A stretch of 64,000 nucleotides of DNA from Streptococcus toyakuensis (lineage in GTDB: Bacteria; Bacillota; Bacilli; Lactobacillales; Streptococcaceae). The notes under the pieces were generated by a model. The model was not told where the DNA came from. It did not search any database and saw nothing but the letters and a program-made list of their open reading frames with translations. Shown here piece after piece: positions 26,500-35,057 of this stretch. The first letter of the stretch is position 1, and every line of letters begins with the position of its first letter. Position numbers and translations under genes: made by a program. The DNA lies in the NCBI RefSeq assembly GCF_024346585.1, contig NZ_AP024523.1, positions 815,001-879,000 of the forward strand, written 5' to 3'.

Positions 26500-28443
26500 G
26501 TGTCAAAAAAGGAAATCAATATTAATAACTACAATGATGACGCCATTCAGGTGCTAGAAGGGTTGGATGCGGTCCGTAAACGTCCGGGGATGTATATTGG
26601 ATCGACTGACGGTGCTGGTCTCCATCACCTAGTCTGGGAAATTGTGGATAATGCAGTCGATGAAGCCTTGTCTGGATTTGGTGACCGTATTGATGTGACC
26701 ATCAATAAAGACGGAAGTCTAACGGTTCAAGACCATGGTCGAGGGATGCCGACTGGGATGCATGCCATGGGAATTCCAACTGTTGAGGTTATCTTTACCA
26801 TTCTCCACGCTGGAGGAAAATTCGGTCAAGGTGGCTATAAGACATCTGGAGGTCTCCACGGGGTGGGTTCTTCCGTTGTTAATGCCCTATCAAGTTGGCT
26901 GGAAGTTGAAATCACCCGTGACGGAACGGTTTATAAACAACGTTTTGAAAATGGTGGAAAACCCGTCACAACCTTGAAGAAAATTGGTACAGCACCCAAG
27001 TCTAAGACAGGTACTAAAGTCACTTTCATGCCTGACGCGACGATTTTCTCTACGACTGACTTCAAGTACAATACCATTTCAGAACGACTCAATGAGTCAG
27101 CCTTTCTCTTAAAAAATGTCACCTTGTCTCTGACAGACAAGCGAACAGATGAAGCAATCGAATTCCATTATGAGAACGGGGTTCAGGACTTTGTTTCTTA
27201 CCTCAATGAAGACAAGGAAACCTTGACGCCAGTCCTTTACTTTGAAGGGGAAGACAATGGTTTCCAAGTGGAAGTAGCTCTCCAGTACAATGATGGATTT
27301 TCAGATAACATTCTATCCTTTGTCAATAACGTTCGCACCAAAGATGGTGGTACGCACGAGACAGGACTCAAGTCTGCCATTACCAAGGTTATGAACGACT
27401 ACGCGCGTAAGACAGGCCTCCTCAAGGAAAAAGATAAAAACCTTGAAGGGTCAGACTATCGTGAGGGGCTAGCGGCTGTCCTCTCTATTCTAGTTCCTGA
27501 AGAACATTTGCAGTTTGAGGGTCAGACCAAGGACAAACTAGGAAGTCCACTAGCTCGCCCGGTTGTGGATGGAATTGTGGCAGATAAGTTGACCTTCTTC
27601 CTTATGGAAAATGGTGAATTGGCTTCTAACCTTATCCGCAAGGCTATCAAGGCGCGTGATGCTCGCGAAGCGGCACGAAAAGCACGTGATGAGAGCCGAA
27701 ATGGTAAGAAAAACAAGAAAGACAAGGGCTTGTTGTCGGGTAAATTAACACCAGCCCAGTCTAAGAATCCAGCTAAGAACGAGCTCTATCTAGTCGAGGG
27801 GGATTCTGCCGGTGGTTCTGCCAAACAAGGCCGTGACCGCAAGTTCCAGGCAATCTTGCCCCTTCGTGGTAAGGTTATCAATACAGCCAAGGCCAAGATG
27901 GCGGATATTCTCAAAAATGAGGAAATCAACACCATGATTTATACTATTGGTGCTGGTGTAGGAGCAGATTTCTCCCTTGAAGATGCCAATTATGACAAGA
28001 TCATTATCATGACCGATGCGGATACTGACGGTGCCCACATTCAAACACTTCTCTTAACCTTCTTTTACCGCTATATGCGTCCTCTTGTCGAGGCAGGTCA
28101 TGTCTATATCGCCCTTCCGCCTCTTTACAAGATGTCAAAAGGTAAAGGCAAGAAGGAAGAAGTAGCTTACGCATGGACGGACGGGGAACTAGAAGAACTC
28201 CGCAAGCAGTTCGGTAAAGGAGCAACACTCCAACGCTACAAGGGGCTTGGAGAGATGAATGCCGACCAGCTCTGGGAAACAACCATGAACCCAGAAACTC
28301 GTACCCTCATCCGTGTCACAATCGAAGACCTAGCCCGCGCCGAACGCCGCGTCAATGTCCTCATGGGCGATAAGGTCGAACCACGACGTAAGTGGATTGA
28401 GGATAATGTCAAGTTTACGTTGGAAGAAGCGACAGTGTTTTAA
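26500..28443 (+). CDS. parE: DNA topoisomerase IV subunit B
   Basis: ParE is the ATPase subunit of topoisomerase IV, which decatenates daughter chromosomes. The 647-residue protein has the GHKL ATP site (EIVDNAVDEAL, DHGRGMPTGMH, GGLHGVGSSVVNALS), the TOPRIM motifs EGDSAGGSAKQGRD and DADTDGAHI, and the C-terminal QRYKGLGEMNADQLW. The start is GTG at 26500 after AGGAGG. Tyr113 (codon 26836-26838, in GGYKTSGG) aligns with the tyrosine that FicT toxins adenylylate in E. coli GyrB. parC lies 4.1 kb downstream, beyond accessory genes. Confidence 0.97.
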   Translation: MSKKEININNYNDDAIQVLEGLDAVRKRPGMYIGSTDGAGLHHLVWEIVDNAVDEALSGFGDRIDVTINKDGSLTVQDHGRGMPTGMHAMGIPTVEVIFTILHAGGKFGQGGYKTSGGLHGVGSSVVNALSSWLEVEITRDGTVYKQRFENGGKPVTTLKKIGTAPKSKTGTKVTFMPDATIFSTTDFKYNTISERLNESAFLLKNVTLSLTDKRTDEAIEFHYENGVQDFVSYLNEDKETLTPVLYFEGEDNGFQVEVALQYNDGFSDNILSFVNNVRTKDGGTHETGLKSAITKVMNDYARKTGLLKEKDKNLEGSDYREGLAAVLSILVPEEHLQFEGQTKDKLGSPLARPVVDGIVADKLTFFLMENGELASNLIRKAIKARDAREAARKARDESRNGKKNKKDKGLLSGKLTPAQSKNPAKNELYLVEGDSAGGSAKQGRDRKFQAILPLRGKVINTAKAKMADILKNEEINTMIYTIGAGVGADFSLEDANYDKIIIMTDADTDGAHIQTLLLTFFYRYMRPLVEAGHVYIALPPLYKMSKGKGKKEEVAYAWTDGELEELRKQFGKGATLQRYKGLGEMNADQLWETTMNPETRTLIRVTIEDLARAERRVNVLMGDKVEPRRKWIEDNVKFTLEEATVF

Positions 28444-28466: not shown

Positions 28467-29468
28467 GTGAGAGTTATTGAATTATTTGCAGGTGCAGGTG
28501 GTTTGGCACTTGGAATAGAAAAAGCTGGATTCGAAGCCATTGGTTTGATTGAGTTTGATAAAGCAGCAGCGGCAACATTGAAACACAACAGACCTAGTTG
28601 GAATGTCATTCATGATGATATTGCAAATATTTCATCTCTTGATTTGGAGGAATATTTTAATATAAAAAAGGGAGAACTAGAACTGTTGAGCGGAGGTGCT
28701 CCCTGCCAAGCTTTTTCTTATGCTGGGAAACGTTTAGGTTTAGAGGATGCTCGAGGTACATTATTCTACCACTATGCAATATTTCTAAATAAACTTCAAC
28801 CGAAAATGTTTGTTTTTGAAAATGTACGTGGCCTAGTTTCTCATGATCATGGAAAAACATTTCGAACTATTATGGATATTTTTTCGGATGAAGGTTACAC
28901 GGTTAAATGGAAGGTTTTAAATGCCTGGGATTATGGAGTGGCTCAGAAACGTGAACGTATGATTATGGTTGGGGTTAGAAATGACTTAGCTGATATTATT
29001 TCGTTTGATTATCCAGAACCACATGAATATAAGCCAGTATTGAGAGATATATTATTAGATAGTCCGCCTAGTGTTGGTGCACAATATTCTGATTACAAGA
29101 GAAAAATTTTTGAATTAGTTCCCCCAGGTGGCTATTGGCGTGATATTCCAGAAGATATTGCAAAAGAGTATATGAAGTCAACTTGGGATATGACTGGGGG
29201 CAGGACAGGTATTTTGAGAAGAATGAGTTTAGATGAGCCATCTTTAACAGTTTTAACATCTCCTACCCAAAAACAAACAGAACGTTGCCATCCATTGGAG
29301 GCTCGTCCTTTTACAGTTCGTGAAAATGCTCGCATTCAAAGTTTTCCAGATGATTGGATATTCCAAGGGAGCATAGGAAATCAATATAAGCAAGTGGGGA
29401 ATGCTGTTCCAGTTAACTTGGCTTATGAAGTGGGTATAAAAATAAAAGAAAGTTTGGAGCAACTATGA
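28467..29468 (+). CDS. DNA (cytosine-5) methyltransferase of a type II system
   Basis: This 333-residue enzyme methylates cytosine C5 in a specific sequence and protects the host DNA from its partner nuclease. Motif I is ELFAGAGGLALGIEKAGF, motif IV is GGAPCQAFSYAGKR with the catalytic Cys, and motif VI is FENVRGL. The C-terminal motifs ARIQSFPDDW and KQVGNAVP are present. The start is GTG at 28467 after AAAGAGGAAAT. The stop overlaps the nuclease start by 4 bases. The gene is AT-richer than the flanking topoisomerase genes, consistent with acquisition. The recognition sequence is not readable directly. Confidence 0.93.
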   Translation: MRVIELFAGAGGLALGIEKAGFEAIGLIEFDKAAAATLKHNRPSWNVIHDDIANISSLDLEEYFNIKKGELELLSGGAPCQAFSYAGKRLGLEDARGTLFYHYAIFLNKLQPKMFVFENVRGLVSHDHGKTFRTIMDIFSDEGYTVKWKVLNAWDYGVAQKRERMIMVGVRNDLADIISFDYPEPHEYKPVLRDILLDSPPSVGAQYSDYKRKIFELVPPGGYWRDIPEDIAKEYMKSTWDMTGGRTGILRRMSLDEPSLTVLTSPTQKQTERCHPLEARPFTVRENARIQSFPDDWIFQGSIGNQYKQVGNAVPVNLAYEVGIKIKESLEQL

Positions 29469-30283
29469 CTTGGGATTTAGATTTTATTAGTGAAGAAGAT
29501 TTTTTAAAACATGTTCAAGATACTATTTCGAAGTATGGTGAAAAATTGAAATCTTTTGATTTGAAACGATTTAATAAGAATATTGTAGATCCTGTAAAAC
29601 TAATTTTTGATAAGTCGGTTTATCGTAGTTCTTGGGATGAAATTATTAGTAATGAAATTTTTCGCCAAAGAGATAAGTCAAATAATAATGATATTGGCTA
29701 TTTCCATCAAACTATTTTCAGATATATGAGGAATTGTCGTGTCCCAGATAATGGAAAAGAAGGTGGCTGGGATGTTATATACGAGAATCCAGGAGGAATT
29801 TCTTTACCTGATGGTTCGCGTGTAAGTAGAATTTATGTTGAAATGAAAAATAAGCACAATACTATGAATTCTGCATCATCAGGGAAGACTTTTATCAAGA
29901 TGCAAAATCAGTTATTGAAGGATGACGATTGTGCCTGTTTCTTGGTCGAAGCGATTTCAAAGCAATCTCAAAATATTAAATGGGAACCTAAAGTTGACGG
30001 GGAAAAAGTTGGTCACAAATTTATTCGTAGAGTTAGCCTGGATCAATTTTATTTCATGGTAACGGGTGAAAAAGATGCTTTTTATAAGATGTGTATGAAT
30101 TTACCGTCAGTAGCTGAGAAGGCAGTAGAAAAAATGGGAACAGAGATCGTGCCAAATGATACTGTTTTTGAAGAAATCATTATGAAAGCAGAAGGAAATA
30201 TTGAAGATGATAGTGAATTGGCAGTTGCAAGAGTGATCTATCTTCTAGGATTTTCAACTTATTTAGGTTTTGATAGAACATGA
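29465..30283 (+). CDS. Type II restriction endonuclease, Eco47II/Sau96I-like
   Basis: A 272-residue protein encoded directly after the methyltransferase and overlapping it by 4 bases, so it is almost certainly the paired nuclease. WDVIYENPGGISLPDGSRVS and IYVEMKNKHNTMNSASSG resemble the Eco47II family, in which the Glu-x-Lys (EMKNKHNT) is part of a PD-(D/E)xK-type active site. If the family call is right, the target would be of the GGNCC or GGWCC type. This is recalled similarity, not a search result. The gene is strongly AT-rich, and no controller protein gene is present. Confidence 0.75.
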   Translation: MTWDLDFISEEDFLKHVQDTISKYGEKLKSFDLKRFNKNIVDPVKLIFDKSVYRSSWDEIISNEIFRQRDKSNNNDIGYFHQTIFRYMRNCRVPDNGKEGGWDVIYENPGGISLPDGSRVSRIYVEMKNKHNTMNSASSGKTFIKMQNQLLKDDDCACFLVEAISKQSQNIKWEPKVDGEKVGHKFIRRVSLDQFYFMVTGEKDAFYKMCMNLPSVAEKAVEKMGTEIVPNDTVFEEIIMKAEGNIEDDSELAVARVIYLLGFSTYLGFDRT

Positions 30284-30323: not shown

Positions 30324-30920
30324 TTGGATAATAAACTAGGCACTACAAACTCAGCTCAGCTGGCAGATGCAGAAGAAAAACTGACAAAAAAACAAGCCGC
30401 CCTGCTTTTCCAGACAGGAGACTTGTTCAAGATGGAAGTTGGGACATTTGCAGGGCTGTCAGCTATTCACCACTATCTATTTTCCGGTATATATGATTTC
30501 GCTGGAAAAATACGTGATGTTAATATTGCAAAGGATAATTTTCAATTTGCGCCTCGTATTTTTTTAGAGCAATCCTTACAGTATATTGACAAACTTCCTC
30601 ATGACAATTTTGATCAAGTGGTTGATAAGTATGCGGATATGAATATTGCCCATCCTTTCCGTGAGGGGAATGGACGCACAATGCGGATTTGGCTAGATTG
30701 TATGCTTCGTGAGAAACTGGGCAAAGTGGTAGACTGGAATGCTATAGATAAGAATGAGTACCTCAATGCCATGAAGCGTAGTGCAGTATCAACTGGAGAA
30801 CTCAAGTATTTGATCCTCAATAATTTGACGGATGACCTCAGTCAGACCAGTTTCTTTAAGGGAGTGGATGCTTCATACTACTACGAAGGATATAGCCTTT
30901 ACCAGACAGGGGAGTTATAG
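30324..30920 (+). CDS. Fic-domain AMP-transferase, class III (C-terminal inhibitory helix)
   Basis: This 198-residue protein carries a complete Fic motif, HPFREGNGRTMR (His110 to Arg121), so it should transfer AMP from ATP to a target tyrosine or threonine. Its C-terminus contains SYYYEG (184-189), matching the class III autoinhibitory motif (S/T)xxxE(G/N) with inhibitory Glu188. The short length and the spacing resemble the Neisseria meningitidis Fic protein. Class III enzymes are restrained by their own helix, so no antitoxin gene is needed, and none is seen. The start is TTG at 30324 after AAGG. It lies between parE and parC; related Fic proteins modify GyrB/ParE. The target here is inferred, not shown. 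Confidence 0.88.
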   Translation: MDNKLGTTNSAQLADAEEKLTKKQAALLFQTGDLFKMEVGTFAGLSAIHHYLFSGIYDFAGKIRDVNIAKDNFQFAPRIFLEQSLQYIDKLPHDNFDQVVDKYADMNIAHPFREGNGRTMRIWLDCMLREKLGKVVDWNAIDKNEYLNAMKRSAVSTGELKYLILNNLTDDLSQTSFFKGVDASYYYEGYSLYQTGEL

Positions 30921-30984: not shown

Positions 30985-31818
30985 ATGAGAGCTGAAACAG
31001 AAATGCTAGATCTGATTTTACAGATTGCCAAAACTTTACAAGTCAAAGCTGTCGCTATGTCTGGTTCAAGGACAAACCCAAAGGCCCTAAAAGATGAACT
31101 TCAAGACTATGACGTGGTCTATGTCGTGGACGATTTAGATAATCTGACGAGTGACCTTTCTTGGCTAGACCAGTTTGGCAAACGCATTATTGATCAAGAG
31201 GTTGCTCTTGACCATCGTCGTCTATTTCTCATGCTCTTTGAAGATGGTAACCGCATTGATTTAACTCTCTGCCCCAAAGAGAACATCAAGGAGTGGGTAG
31301 ATAGCGAGTCGAAATTCATAGTTTTAGAAGATGAGAAGAGCTTGTTTGAGTCCTATTCTCCCAGTCCAAAGCGTTTCTGGACAAGCCCAGCTACTGAAAT
31401 GGATTTTAAAAATTCCTGCAATGAATTTTGGTGGGTGTCGGCCTACGTGGTCAAAGGAATCTGTCGCAAGCAAGTTTTCTATGTCACTGACCATCTTTAC
31501 GGGATTTGCCAACAAGAACTCCTGAAGATCTTGGCTTGGCAGGTTGCAAGTGATAGGGGAACAGTCGATATTGGCAAGAACTACAAGTATCTTTTCAAGT
31601 ATTTACCTACAGAGAAAGAGAAGGAAATCTCTGCTCTCCTTGATTTTTCAAGTGTAGAGAAACTTACTCAGTCATTGTTTGCTACGATGCAACTTTTTCA
31701 CCAAGAAGCTCAATCCCTTGCTCAAAAGATGGGATTTGATTACGATAAGGAAGTAGCTGAGAAGATGATGAGATATGCTGAGGAGAGACTCGAAAAAAAT
31801 GAAACATTTACAAAATAA
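30985..31818 (+). CDS. ANT(6)-like aminoglycoside nucleotidyltransferase
   Basis: The 277-residue protein resembles AadE/ANT(6), which adenylylates streptomycin at O-6. MRAETEMLDLILQIAK and the nucleotidyltransferase core GSRTNP followed by DELQDYDVVYVV (with the DxD-type metal site) are characteristic. FWWVSAYVVKGICRKQ and DHLY are conserved in the C-terminal domain. AGAAGG lies 9 to 14 bases before the ATG at 30985. Many chromosomal members of this family do not confer measurable resistance, so the phenotype is open. The last 20 bases overlap the next gene. Confidence 0.85.
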   Translation: MRAETEMLDLILQIAKTLQVKAVAMSGSRTNPKALKDELQDYDVVYVVDDLDNLTSDLSWLDQFGKRIIDQEVALDHRRLFLMLFEDGNRIDLTLCPKENIKEWVDSESKFIVLEDEKSLFESYSPSPKRFWTSPATEMDFKNSCNEFWWVSAYVVKGICRKQVFYVTDHLYGICQQELLKILAWQVASDRGTVDIGKNYKYLFKYLPTEKEKEISALLDFSSVEKLTQSLFATMQLFHQEAQSLAQKMGFDYDKEVAEKMMRYAEERLEKNETFTK

Positions 31819-32585: not shown

Positions 32586-35057
32586 ATGTCTAACATTCAA
32601 AACATGTCCCTGGAGGACATTATGGGAGAGCGTTTTGGGCGCTACTCCAAGTACATTATTCAAGACCGGGCTTTGCCAGATATTCGTGATGGATTGAAGC
32701 CGGTTCAGCGCCGTATTCTTTATTCGATGAATAAGGATGGCAATACCTTTGACAAGAGCTACCGTAAGTCGGCTAAGTCTGTCGGGAATATCATGGGGAA
32801 TTTCCACCCACACGGTGACATTTCTATCTATGATGCCATGGTCCGTATGTCTCAGGACTGGAAGAACCGTGAGATTCTAGTCGAAATGCACGGTAATAAC
32901 GGTTCTATGGACGGAGATCCGCCTGCGGCTATGCGTTATACTGAGGCGCGTTTGTCTGAGATTGCGGGTTATCTTCTTCAGGATATCGAGAAAAAGACCG
33001 TTCCTTTTGCTTGGAACTTTGACGATACCGAGAAAGAGCCGACAGTCTTGCCAGCAGCCTTTCCAAACCTTTTGGTTAATGGTTCGACTGGTATTTCGGC
33101 TGGTTATGCCACAGATATTCCACCTCATAATTTGGCTGAGGTCATTGATGCGGCGGTTTACATGATTGATCATCCAACTGCCAAGGTGGACAAACTCATG
33201 GAATTCTTACCTGGACCAGACTTCCCGACTGGAGGGATTATCCAGGGTCGTGATGAAATCAAGAAGGCCTATGAAACTGGGAAAGGGCGCGTGGTTGTTC
33301 GTTCCAAGACTGAGATTGAAAAGCTAAAAGGTGGTAAGGAACAAATCGTTGTCACTGAGATTCCTTATGAAATCAACAAGGCCAATCTAGTCAAGAAGAT
33401 TGATGATGTTCGTGTCAATAATAAGGTAGCAGGTATTGCTGAGGTTCGCGATGAGTCTGACCGTGACGGTCTTCGTATCGCTATTGAACTTAAGAAAGAC
33501 GCTAATACAGAGCTCGTTCTCAACTATCTCTTTAAATATACTGACCTGCAAATCAACTACAACTTTAACATGGTGGCGATTGACAATTTCACACCTCGTC
33601 AGGTCGGTATTGTCCCAATCTTGTCTAGCTATATTGCCCACCGTCGTGAAGTGATTTTGGCGCGTTCTCGATTTGATAAGGAAAAGGCTGAGAAACGTCT
33701 CCATATCGTTGAAGGTTTGATTCGTGTGATTTCGATTTTGGACGAAGTCATTGCCCTTATCCGTGCTTCTGAGAATAAAGCTGATGCCAAGGAAAACCTC
33801 AAGGTCAGCTATGATTTTACAGAAGAGCAGGCGGAGGCCATTGTTACCTTGCAACTTTACCGTTTGACCAATACAGACGTTGTTGTCTTGCAAGAAGAAG
33901 AAGCAGAACTTCGTGAAAAGATTGCCATGCTTGCTGCTATCATTGGAGATGAGCGGACCATGTACAATCTTATGAAGAAAGAACTTCGTGAGGTCAAGAA
34001 GAAATTTGCGCCTCCGCGTTTGAGTAGCTTAGAAGACACTGCGAAAGTAATCGAGATTGATACAGCTAGTCTGATCGCCGAGGAAGATACCTACGTCAGC
34101 GTGACCAAGGCAGGTTACATCAAGCGTACCAGTCCACGTTCTTTTGCAGCTTCAACGCTAGAAGAAATTGGCAAACGTGATGATGACCGTTTGATCTTTG
34201 TTCAATCTGCCAAGACAACCCAGCATCTTTTGATGTTCACAAGTCTTGGAAATGTCATTTATCGACCAATCCATGAATTGGCAGACATTCGCTGGAAGGA
34301 CATCGGAGAGCATCTGAGCCAAACCATTACAAACTTCGAAACTAACGAAGAAATCCTTTATGTGGAAGTCGTGGATCAGTTTGATGATGCGACAACTTAT
34401 TTTGCAGCTACTCGTCTCGGTCAAATCAAGCGTGTAGAACGCAAAGAATTCACCCCATGGCGAACCTACAAGTCTAAGTCTGTCAAGTATGCTAAGCTCA
34501 AAGACGAGACAGACCAGATTGTAGCAGTGACTCCGATTAAACTAGATGATGTTCTCTTGATTAGTCAAAACGGTTATGCTCTGCGTTTCAATATCGAGGA
34601 GGTTCCTGTTGTTGGTGCTAAGGCTGCAGGTGTCAAGGCTATGAACCTGAAAGAAGATGATGTCCTCCAATCGGCCTTTATCTGTAATACCTCGTCCTTC
34701 TACCTCTTGACTCAGCGTGGAAGTTTGAAACGTGTTTCTGTTGAGGAAATTCCAGCAACCAGCCGTGCCAAACGTGGTTTACAAGTTTTGCGTGAGTTGA
34801 AAAACAAACCGCATCGTGTCTTCTTAGCAGGAGCAGTTGCAGAGCAAGGCTTCGTTGGTGACCTCTTTAGTACAGAAGTGGACGGGAACGATCAAACTCT
34901 GATTGTTCAATCTAACAAAGGAACAATCTATGAAAGTCGACTACAAGACTTGAATCTGTCAGAACGCACAAGTAATGGTAGCTTCATCTCTGACACGATT
35001 TCGGATGAAGAAGTTTTTGACGCTTATCTTAAAGAAGTATTTACTGAAGCTAAATAA
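32586..35057 (+). CDS. parC: DNA topoisomerase IV subunit A
   Basis: ParC cuts and rejoins DNA within topoisomerase IV; catalytic Tyr118 is seen in AAMRYTEAR. The 823-residue length is normal. The quinolone-resistance region reads FHPHGDISIYDAMVRMSQDW: residue 79 is Ile (codon ATT, 32820-32822), where susceptible streptococci have Ser. Asp83 and Lys137 are unchanged. Gly52 and Asp91 differ from the usual pneumococcal Ser52 and Asn91. Ser79 substitutions are a well-known fluoroquinolone-resistance change, so reduced susceptibility is likely. The C-terminal beta-pinwheel repeats are intact. Confidence 0.97.
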   Translation: MSNIQNMSLEDIMGERFGRYSKYIIQDRALPDIRDGLKPVQRRILYSMNKDGNTFDKSYRKSAKSVGNIMGNFHPHGDISIYDAMVRMSQDWKNREILVEMHGNNGSMDGDPPAAMRYTEARLSEIAGYLLQDIEKKTVPFAWNFDDTEKEPTVLPAAFPNLLVNGSTGISAGYATDIPPHNLAEVIDAAVYMIDHPTAKVDKLMEFLPGPDFPTGGIIQGRDEIKKAYETGKGRVVVRSKTEIEKLKGGKEQIVVTEIPYEINKANLVKKIDDVRVNNKVAGIAEVRDESDRDGLRIAIELKKDANTELVLNYLFKYTDLQINYNFNMVAIDNFTPRQVGIVPILSSYIAHRREVILARSRFDKEKAEKRLHIVEGLIRVISILDEVIALIRASENKADAKENLKVSYDFTEEQAEAIVTLQLYRLTNTDVVVLQEEEAELREKIAMLAAIIGDERTMYNLMKKELREVKKKFAPPRLSSLEDTAKVIEIDTASLIAEEDTYVSVTKAGYIKRTSPRSFAASTLEEIGKRDDDRLIFVQSAKTTQHLLMFTSLGNVIYRPIHELADIRWKDIGEHLSQTITNFETNEEILYVEVVDQFDDATTYFAATRLGQIKRVERKEFTPWRTYKSKSVKYAKLKDETDQIVAVTPIKLDDVLLISQNGYALRFNIEEVPVVGAKAAGVKAMNLKEDDVLQSAFICNTSSFYLLTQRGSLKRVSVEEIPATSRAKRGLQVLRELKNKPHRVFLAGAVAEQGFVGDLFSTEVDGNDQTLIVQSNKGTIYESRLQDLNLSERTSNGSFISDTISDEEVFDAYLKEVFTEAK

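What the first reader, a model, noticed from the sequence alone, without database searches (positions are those of the whole stretch)
32820..32822. ParC carries Ile at position 79, a known fluoroquinolone-resistance position
Counting from the parC start, HGDISIYD places Ile at residue 79 (codon ATT). Streptococcal ParC normally has Ser here, and Ser79 substitutions (Phe, Tyr, Ile) are an established first-step cause of fluoroquinolone resistance. Asp83 is unchanged. ATT is one step from AGT but two from TCT, so the ancestral codon may have been AGT.
Basis: partly seen in the sequence, partly recalled or inferred. Interest (0 to 1): 0.75.

Follow-up and report, generated by a model that had tools for sequence, protein, structure and literature searches.

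The report
Known fluoroquinolone-resistance mutation in streptococcal ParC
This mouth-type Streptococcus carries the ordinary two-step set of target mutations (ParC Ser79Ile plus GyrA Ser81Tyr) that published work links to high-level fluoroquinolone resistance; it is real and clinically meaningful but already well known.

Summary
In detail: parC runs 32586-35057 (+), and codon 79 is ATT (Ile) at 32820-32822. Asp83 is unchanged. Of 284 Streptococcus genomes, 4 match an Ile79 pattern. In 68 distinct mitis-group parC alleles, residue 79 is Ser in 61, Ile in 4, Phe in 2, Tyr in 1. ParE positions 435, 454, 460 and 474 are ordinary. The genotype is in print: S. mitis SVGS_061 (S79I + S81F, moxifloxacin MIC 4), S. 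sputorum (S79I + S81Y), and a pneumococcus (S79I + S81F, ciprofloxacin 32). So this is an already known resistance genotype, predicted high-level rather than only first-step. No MIC could be measured. Interest is low.

The parts
32586..35057 (+). parC, topoisomerase IV subunit A, 823 aa
   Evidence: ORF; TIGR01061 over cut-off; Pfam PF00521 and PF03989; aligned to S. pneumoniae ParC 2nov_A
32820..32822 (+). parC codon 79, ATT = Ile (Ser in 61 of 68 distinct mitis-group alleles)
32832..32834 (+). parC codon 83, Asp, unchanged; contacts the drug's magnesium ion through a water
   Evidence: residue; role of Asp83 from PMC4822561 passages
26500..28443 (+). parE, topoisomerase IV subunit B; D435, P454, I460, E474 as in the 48 (of 49) relatives that could be read
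   Evidence: TIGR01058; residues
28444..32585 (+). 4.1-kb parE-parC gap with C5 methyltransferase, Eco47II-type endonuclease, Fic, ant(6)-like and CPBP genes; context, not cause
   Evidence: gap lengths in 47 of 50 named relatives

Best explanation
A G-to-T point mutation changed parC codon 79 from AGT (Ser) to ATT (Ile) under fluoroquinolone selection. Ser79 and Asp83 of ParC hold the drug through a magnesium ion and its waters; replacing the serine hydroxyl with an isoleucine side chain weakens drug binding to the topoisomerase IV-DNA cleavage complex while keeping the enzyme working. A second change, GyrA Ser81Tyr, protects the other target, gyrase. Together they should give high-level fluoroquinolone resistance. 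Shown here: both residues, their rarity, a likely AGT background, their co-occurrence, and ordinary ParE positions. Inferred: drug selection, loss of drug binding and the raised MIC.
For: Codon and residue. GyrA Tyr81 (TAC) in the same genome. Rarity: 4 of 284. 4 of 4 Ile79 genomes carry a GyrA-81 change against 8 of 284 found with Phe/Tyr/Leu. Longest-tract neighbours carry AGT. Published: S. mitis SVGS_061, S79I + S81F, moxifloxacin MIC 4 ug/ml (PMC4824267, part 1 of 2 of the whole text read); S. pneumoniae S79I + S81F, ciprofloxacin 32, levofloxacin 16 ug/ml (PMC3323274, Results part 1 of 2 read); S. sputorum SP218/SP219, S79I + S81Y, not susceptible to fluoroquinolone (PMC8698525, passages and part 1 of 4). 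Asp83-water-Mg contact with levofloxacin in S. pneumoniae topoisomerase IV (PMC4822561, passages); the Ser79 half of the bridge is recalled.
Against: No MIC for this strain. The one published isolate I saw with S79I and no typical GyrA change (14_4477, PMC7497345, passages) came without its own fluoroquinolone MIC in what I read, so the separate effect of S79I is less directly documented here than that of S79F/Y. The private ParC Thr476Pro, GyrB and efflux were not assessed.
Confidence: 0.95

Rival explanations
1. Ile79 is a neutral, lineage-specific residue of this species and has nothing to do with drugs.
For: The genomes searched hold one per species, so fixation within this species cannot be excluded; the residue is not Ser in every species, e.g. 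ACT (Thr) at a ParC-type motif in G087.
Against: Closest alleles carry Ser; Ile79 appears on four different parC backgrounds, each time with a GyrA-81 change; S79I is recorded in resistant isolates.
Confidence: 0.03
2. The Ile79 allele was imported as a block from another streptococcus that was already resistant.
For: parC in this group looks mosaic: the nearest allele changes along the gene; mitis-group parE-parC transfer into pneumococcus is published (PMC3323274; PMC2727337 passages). The tree of the first 600 nt does not by itself exclude one origin (starred branches force only 1 change).
Against: The window allele shares only 50, 47 and 20 nt of identical flank with the other three Ile79 alleles, but 155 nt with a Ser79 (AGT) allele. 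A donor not in the set remains possible.
Confidence: 0.12
3. Sequencing or assembly error at one base.
For: A single base decides the codon; reads were not available.
Against: Single-contig genome, 99.99% complete; a matching second-target change at GyrA 81 would be a strange coincidence.
Confidence: 0.01

Closest known systems
S. mitis SVGS_061 (PMC4824267)
   Same: ParC Ser79Ile with a GyrA Ser81 change in a mitis-group genome; the paper also reports mef and tetM, and here a Mef(A) and a tetracycline ribosomal-protection family member score over cut-off
   Different: GyrA is Phe81 there and Tyr81 here; different parC haplotype (15 differences over codons 41-120 to G109, which I take to be this strain)
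S. sputorum SP218/SP219 (PMC8698525)
   Same: Same pair, ParC S79I + GyrA S81Y, with S114G in GyrA and S52G/N91D in ParC
   Different: The paper also lists ParC D56E; the window ParC has Asp56. Reported genomes 2.27 Mb against 2.06 Mb here
S. pneumoniae S79I + S81F isolate, Spain 2002 (PMC3323274)
   Same: Same ParC substitution with a GyrA-81 change; MICs reported
   Different: Pneumococcus; Phe81
ParC S79F/S79Y, the common first-step changes
   Same: Same codon position; same mechanism (recalled)
   Different: Phe/Tyr are one step from TCT, Ile one step from AGT (codon arithmetic)

Membership tests
ParC Ser79 fluoroquinolone-resistance mutations | Non-serine residue at ParC position 79 | tested here: met
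   ATT/Ile
ParC Ser79 fluoroquinolone-resistance mutations | Ser is the ordinary residue in relatives | tested here: met
   61 of 68 distinct mitis-group alleles Ser; drug susceptibility of those strains unknown
ParC Ser79 fluoroquinolone-resistance mutations | Raised fluoroquinolone MIC | not testable with these tools
   Published analogues only
ParC Ser79 fluoroquinolone-resistance mutations | Change alone is enough to lower susceptibility | not tested
High-level two-step genotype (ParC + GyrA) | GyrA Ser81 or Glu85 changed | tested here: met
   Tyr81 (TAC), Glu85 intact
High-level two-step genotype (ParC + GyrA) | ParE Asp435 changed (alternative route, not required) | tested here: not met
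   Asp435 intact; ParC 79 already supplies the topoisomerase IV change

The most novel reading that the evidence does not exclude
The kind of serine codon at parC 79 steers the resistance route in mitis-group streptococci: AGT backgrounds can reach Ile in one step, and Ile79 is kept mainly together with a GyrA-81 change (4 of 4 genomes, against 1 of 5 mitis-group genomes with Phe/Tyr79; Fisher p 0.048).
Probability: 0.12. Interest if true: 0.35.

Novelty: already known. Interest (0 to 1): 0.12.

Why it matters
It marks this genome as a carrier of a clinically relevant resistance genotype. Mitis-group streptococci are reported donors of topoisomerase genes to pneumococcus (PMC3323274, PMC2727337; passages and parts read), so such alleles matter for surveillance. 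Nothing about the mechanism is new.

Tried and rejected
Neutral species residue: rejected on rarity and on the Ser neighbours, though one genome per species limits this. Shared ancestry of the four Ile79 alleles: not favoured; they share short tracts only (2 to 59 nt), but the tree of the first 600 nt (67 rows) needs 3 changes with weak support, starred branches force no more than 1, and in it the window groups weakly with alleles of AGT, TTT and TCT type, G109 with a TCT allele and G055 with two AGC alleles. So the tree alone neither proves separate origins nor an AGT ancestor. A ParE route: rejected, key residues ordinary. GyrB was read but not compared. A search for viridans/levofloxacin/parC/gyrA/neutropenic listed two papers, which I did not open. 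Two primary papers on viridans topoisomerase genes (PMC105945, PMC161831) are not held; I know them only from reference lists and recall. I did not search for 'S79I' in GyrA-unchanged isolates beyond.

Script faults: one search's motif was wrong and gave no rows; one search replaced it. In one search my start pattern was too strict and kept 24 of 80 loci; one search replaced it (109 of 110 loci kept; L099 dropped because its motif did not match). In one search residue numbers and the residue-114 letter are wrong for 6 of 11 loci (numbered 582) because the start was not found; there I used only codon 81 by motif and the printed stretch. 'Mitis group' in counts means loci L003-L081 plus L096, a cut by rank of mine.

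Full report
Observation. The parC gene is the 823-aa ORF at 32586-35057 on the + strand. It scores 1275 bits against the curated parC_Gpos model, cut-off 813, and aligns without gaps to solved S. pneumoniae ParC over residues 1-490. Codon 79 lies exactly at 32820-32822 and reads ATT, Ile. In the pneumococcal chain the same column is Ser. Asp83 is intact.

How unusual it is. A degenerate pattern for HGD-Ile-S-IYDA matched 4 of 284 Streptococcus genomes: this one (G000), G055, G109 and G140. The ParC-type motif with any residue at 79 is readable in 278 of 284; in some species the GyrA motif may fit this pattern too, so 278 is an upper figure for parC. Phe or Tyr with the ParC-type Asp codon was found in 15 of 284. 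Of 110 loci holding parC (L003-L112), 109 could be read, giving 97 distinct sequences, 68 of them from the mitis group by my cut: Ser 61, Ile 4, Phe 2, Tyr 1. These are the best-scoring loci of two searches, not every genome.

Ancestral codon. Serine in the mitis-group alleles is written TCT (31), AGT (26) or AGC (4). With codon 79 masked, the window allele shares its longest identical tract around the site, 155 nt, with S. mitis SK608 (L051), which has AGT. The other Ile79 alleles also have their longest tracts with AGT alleles: 405 nt for G109 (one difference over codons 41-120, codon 79 itself), 230 nt for G140 and 108 nt for G055; among themselves the Ile79 alleles share only 2 to 59 nt. 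Counting differences over the first 600 nt, the nearest allele is AGT for the window (29 differences) and G140 (25), AGC for G055 (38), and AGT and TCT tie for G109 (28 each). In the 600-nt tree the neighbours are mixed and support is weak. The simplest reading is separate AGT to ATT events, but parC looks mosaic here, so this is support and not proof.

Second target. The window's assembly encodes GyrA at G000:C1:967,316-969,781; its codon 81 is TAC, Tyr, and Glu85 is intact. The other Ile79 genomes have GyrA Leu81 (G055), Phe81 (G109) and Tyr81 (G140), so 4 of 4. Phe, Tyr or Leu at GyrA 81 was found in 8 of 284 genomes, with the GyrA motif readable in 238 of 284; changes other than Phe/Tyr/Leu were not counted. 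The chance of all four Ile79 genomes falling among the eight is about 5e-7 under independence. I read GyrA in full-length hits for 11 of the 284 genomes. Among them are five of the 15 genomes with Phe/Tyr79, those nearest to the window; GyrA 81 is Ser in 4 and Leu in 1. In the other ten the GyrA pattern found no match, so their GyrA is unknown here. ParE Asp435, Pro454, Ile460 and Glu474 are the same in all 48 relatives that could be read, of 49 given.

Known cases. G109 has exactly the length printed for S. mitis SVGS_061 (2,167,922 bp) and the same two residues (Ser79Ile, Ser81Phe); that paper reports moxifloxacin MIC 4 ug/ml (PMC4824267, part 1 of 2 of the whole text read). That G109 is that strain is my inference. 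S. sputorum SP218/SP219 carry ParC S79I with GyrA S81Y and S114G and are reported as not susceptible to fluoroquinolone (PMC8698525, passages and part 1 of 4). A pneumococcus with S79I + S81F had ciprofloxacin 32 and levofloxacin 16 ug/ml (PMC3323274, passages and Results part 1 of 2). A Polish mitis-group isolate had S79I without a typical GyrA change (PMC7497345, passages). ParC Gly52 and Asp91 are present in all 68 mitis-group alleles, so they are group markers, although PMC8698525 lists them among resistance mutations; PMC3323274 counts N91D and GyrA S114G as not involved in resistance.

Mechanism. In the levofloxacin complex of S. pneumoniae topoisomerase IV, Asp83 reaches the drug's magnesium ion through a coordinated water (PMC4822561, passages). 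That Ser79 forms the other contact of this water-metal bridge is recalled. Ile has no hydroxyl to make that contact. This mechanism and the predicted high MIC are inferred for this strain.

Surroundings. parE and parC are separated here by 4.1 kb. In 47 of 50 named loci where it could be measured the gap is 1.05-6.06 kb, so long gaps are usual in the group; gaps of 4-6 kb with the ant gene are in print for recombinant pneumococci (PMC2727337, passages). Of 109 loci compared, the cytosine methyltransferase and Eco47II-type endonuclease in the gap matched only L034, at 99-100% nucleotide identity; many of those loci hold too little flank (1.5 kb for L004-L032) to show the gap fully, so absence elsewhere is not established. 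L034 carries ParC Tyr79; I see no reason to link the two. The genome also holds a tetracycline ribosomal-protection family member and a Mef(A) family member over the curated cut-offs.

Verdict.

Noticed in passing
28467-30283: C5 cytosine methyltransferase plus Eco47II-type restriction endonuclease between parE and parC; of 109 loci compared only L034 matched, at 99-100% nucleotide identity, but many loci hold too little flank to judge.
   Followed up: partly
30324-30920: Fic protein in the parE-parC gap, over the cut-off for the NmFic family (258.8 against 230 bits); similar DNA over 70% of its length in 10 of 109 loci.
   Followed up: no
30985-31818: ant(6)-like adenylyltransferase, well below NCBIfam's resistance cut-off (212 against 420 bits); an ant-like gene is known from mitis-group parE-parC gaps. 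Not to be called a streptomycin-resistance gene on this evidence.
   Followed up: partly
34011-34013: ParC Thr476Pro: Thr in all other 67 distinct mitis-group alleles, near the end of the breakage-reunion domain; effect unknown.
   Followed up: no
G000:C1:1825054-1826874 and G000:C1:1084111-1085325: Tetracycline ribosomal-protection and Mef(A) family members over curated cut-offs elsewhere in the genome, suggesting multidrug resistance.
   Followed up: partly
L035 (G055, S. hohhotensis IMAU99199): ParC Ile79 together with GyrA Leu81 in a named strain; L035 and G055 have the same parC and contig length.
   Followed up: partly
G087:C32:155481-155506: ParC-type motif with ACT (Thr) at the position of residue 79.
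   Followed up: no
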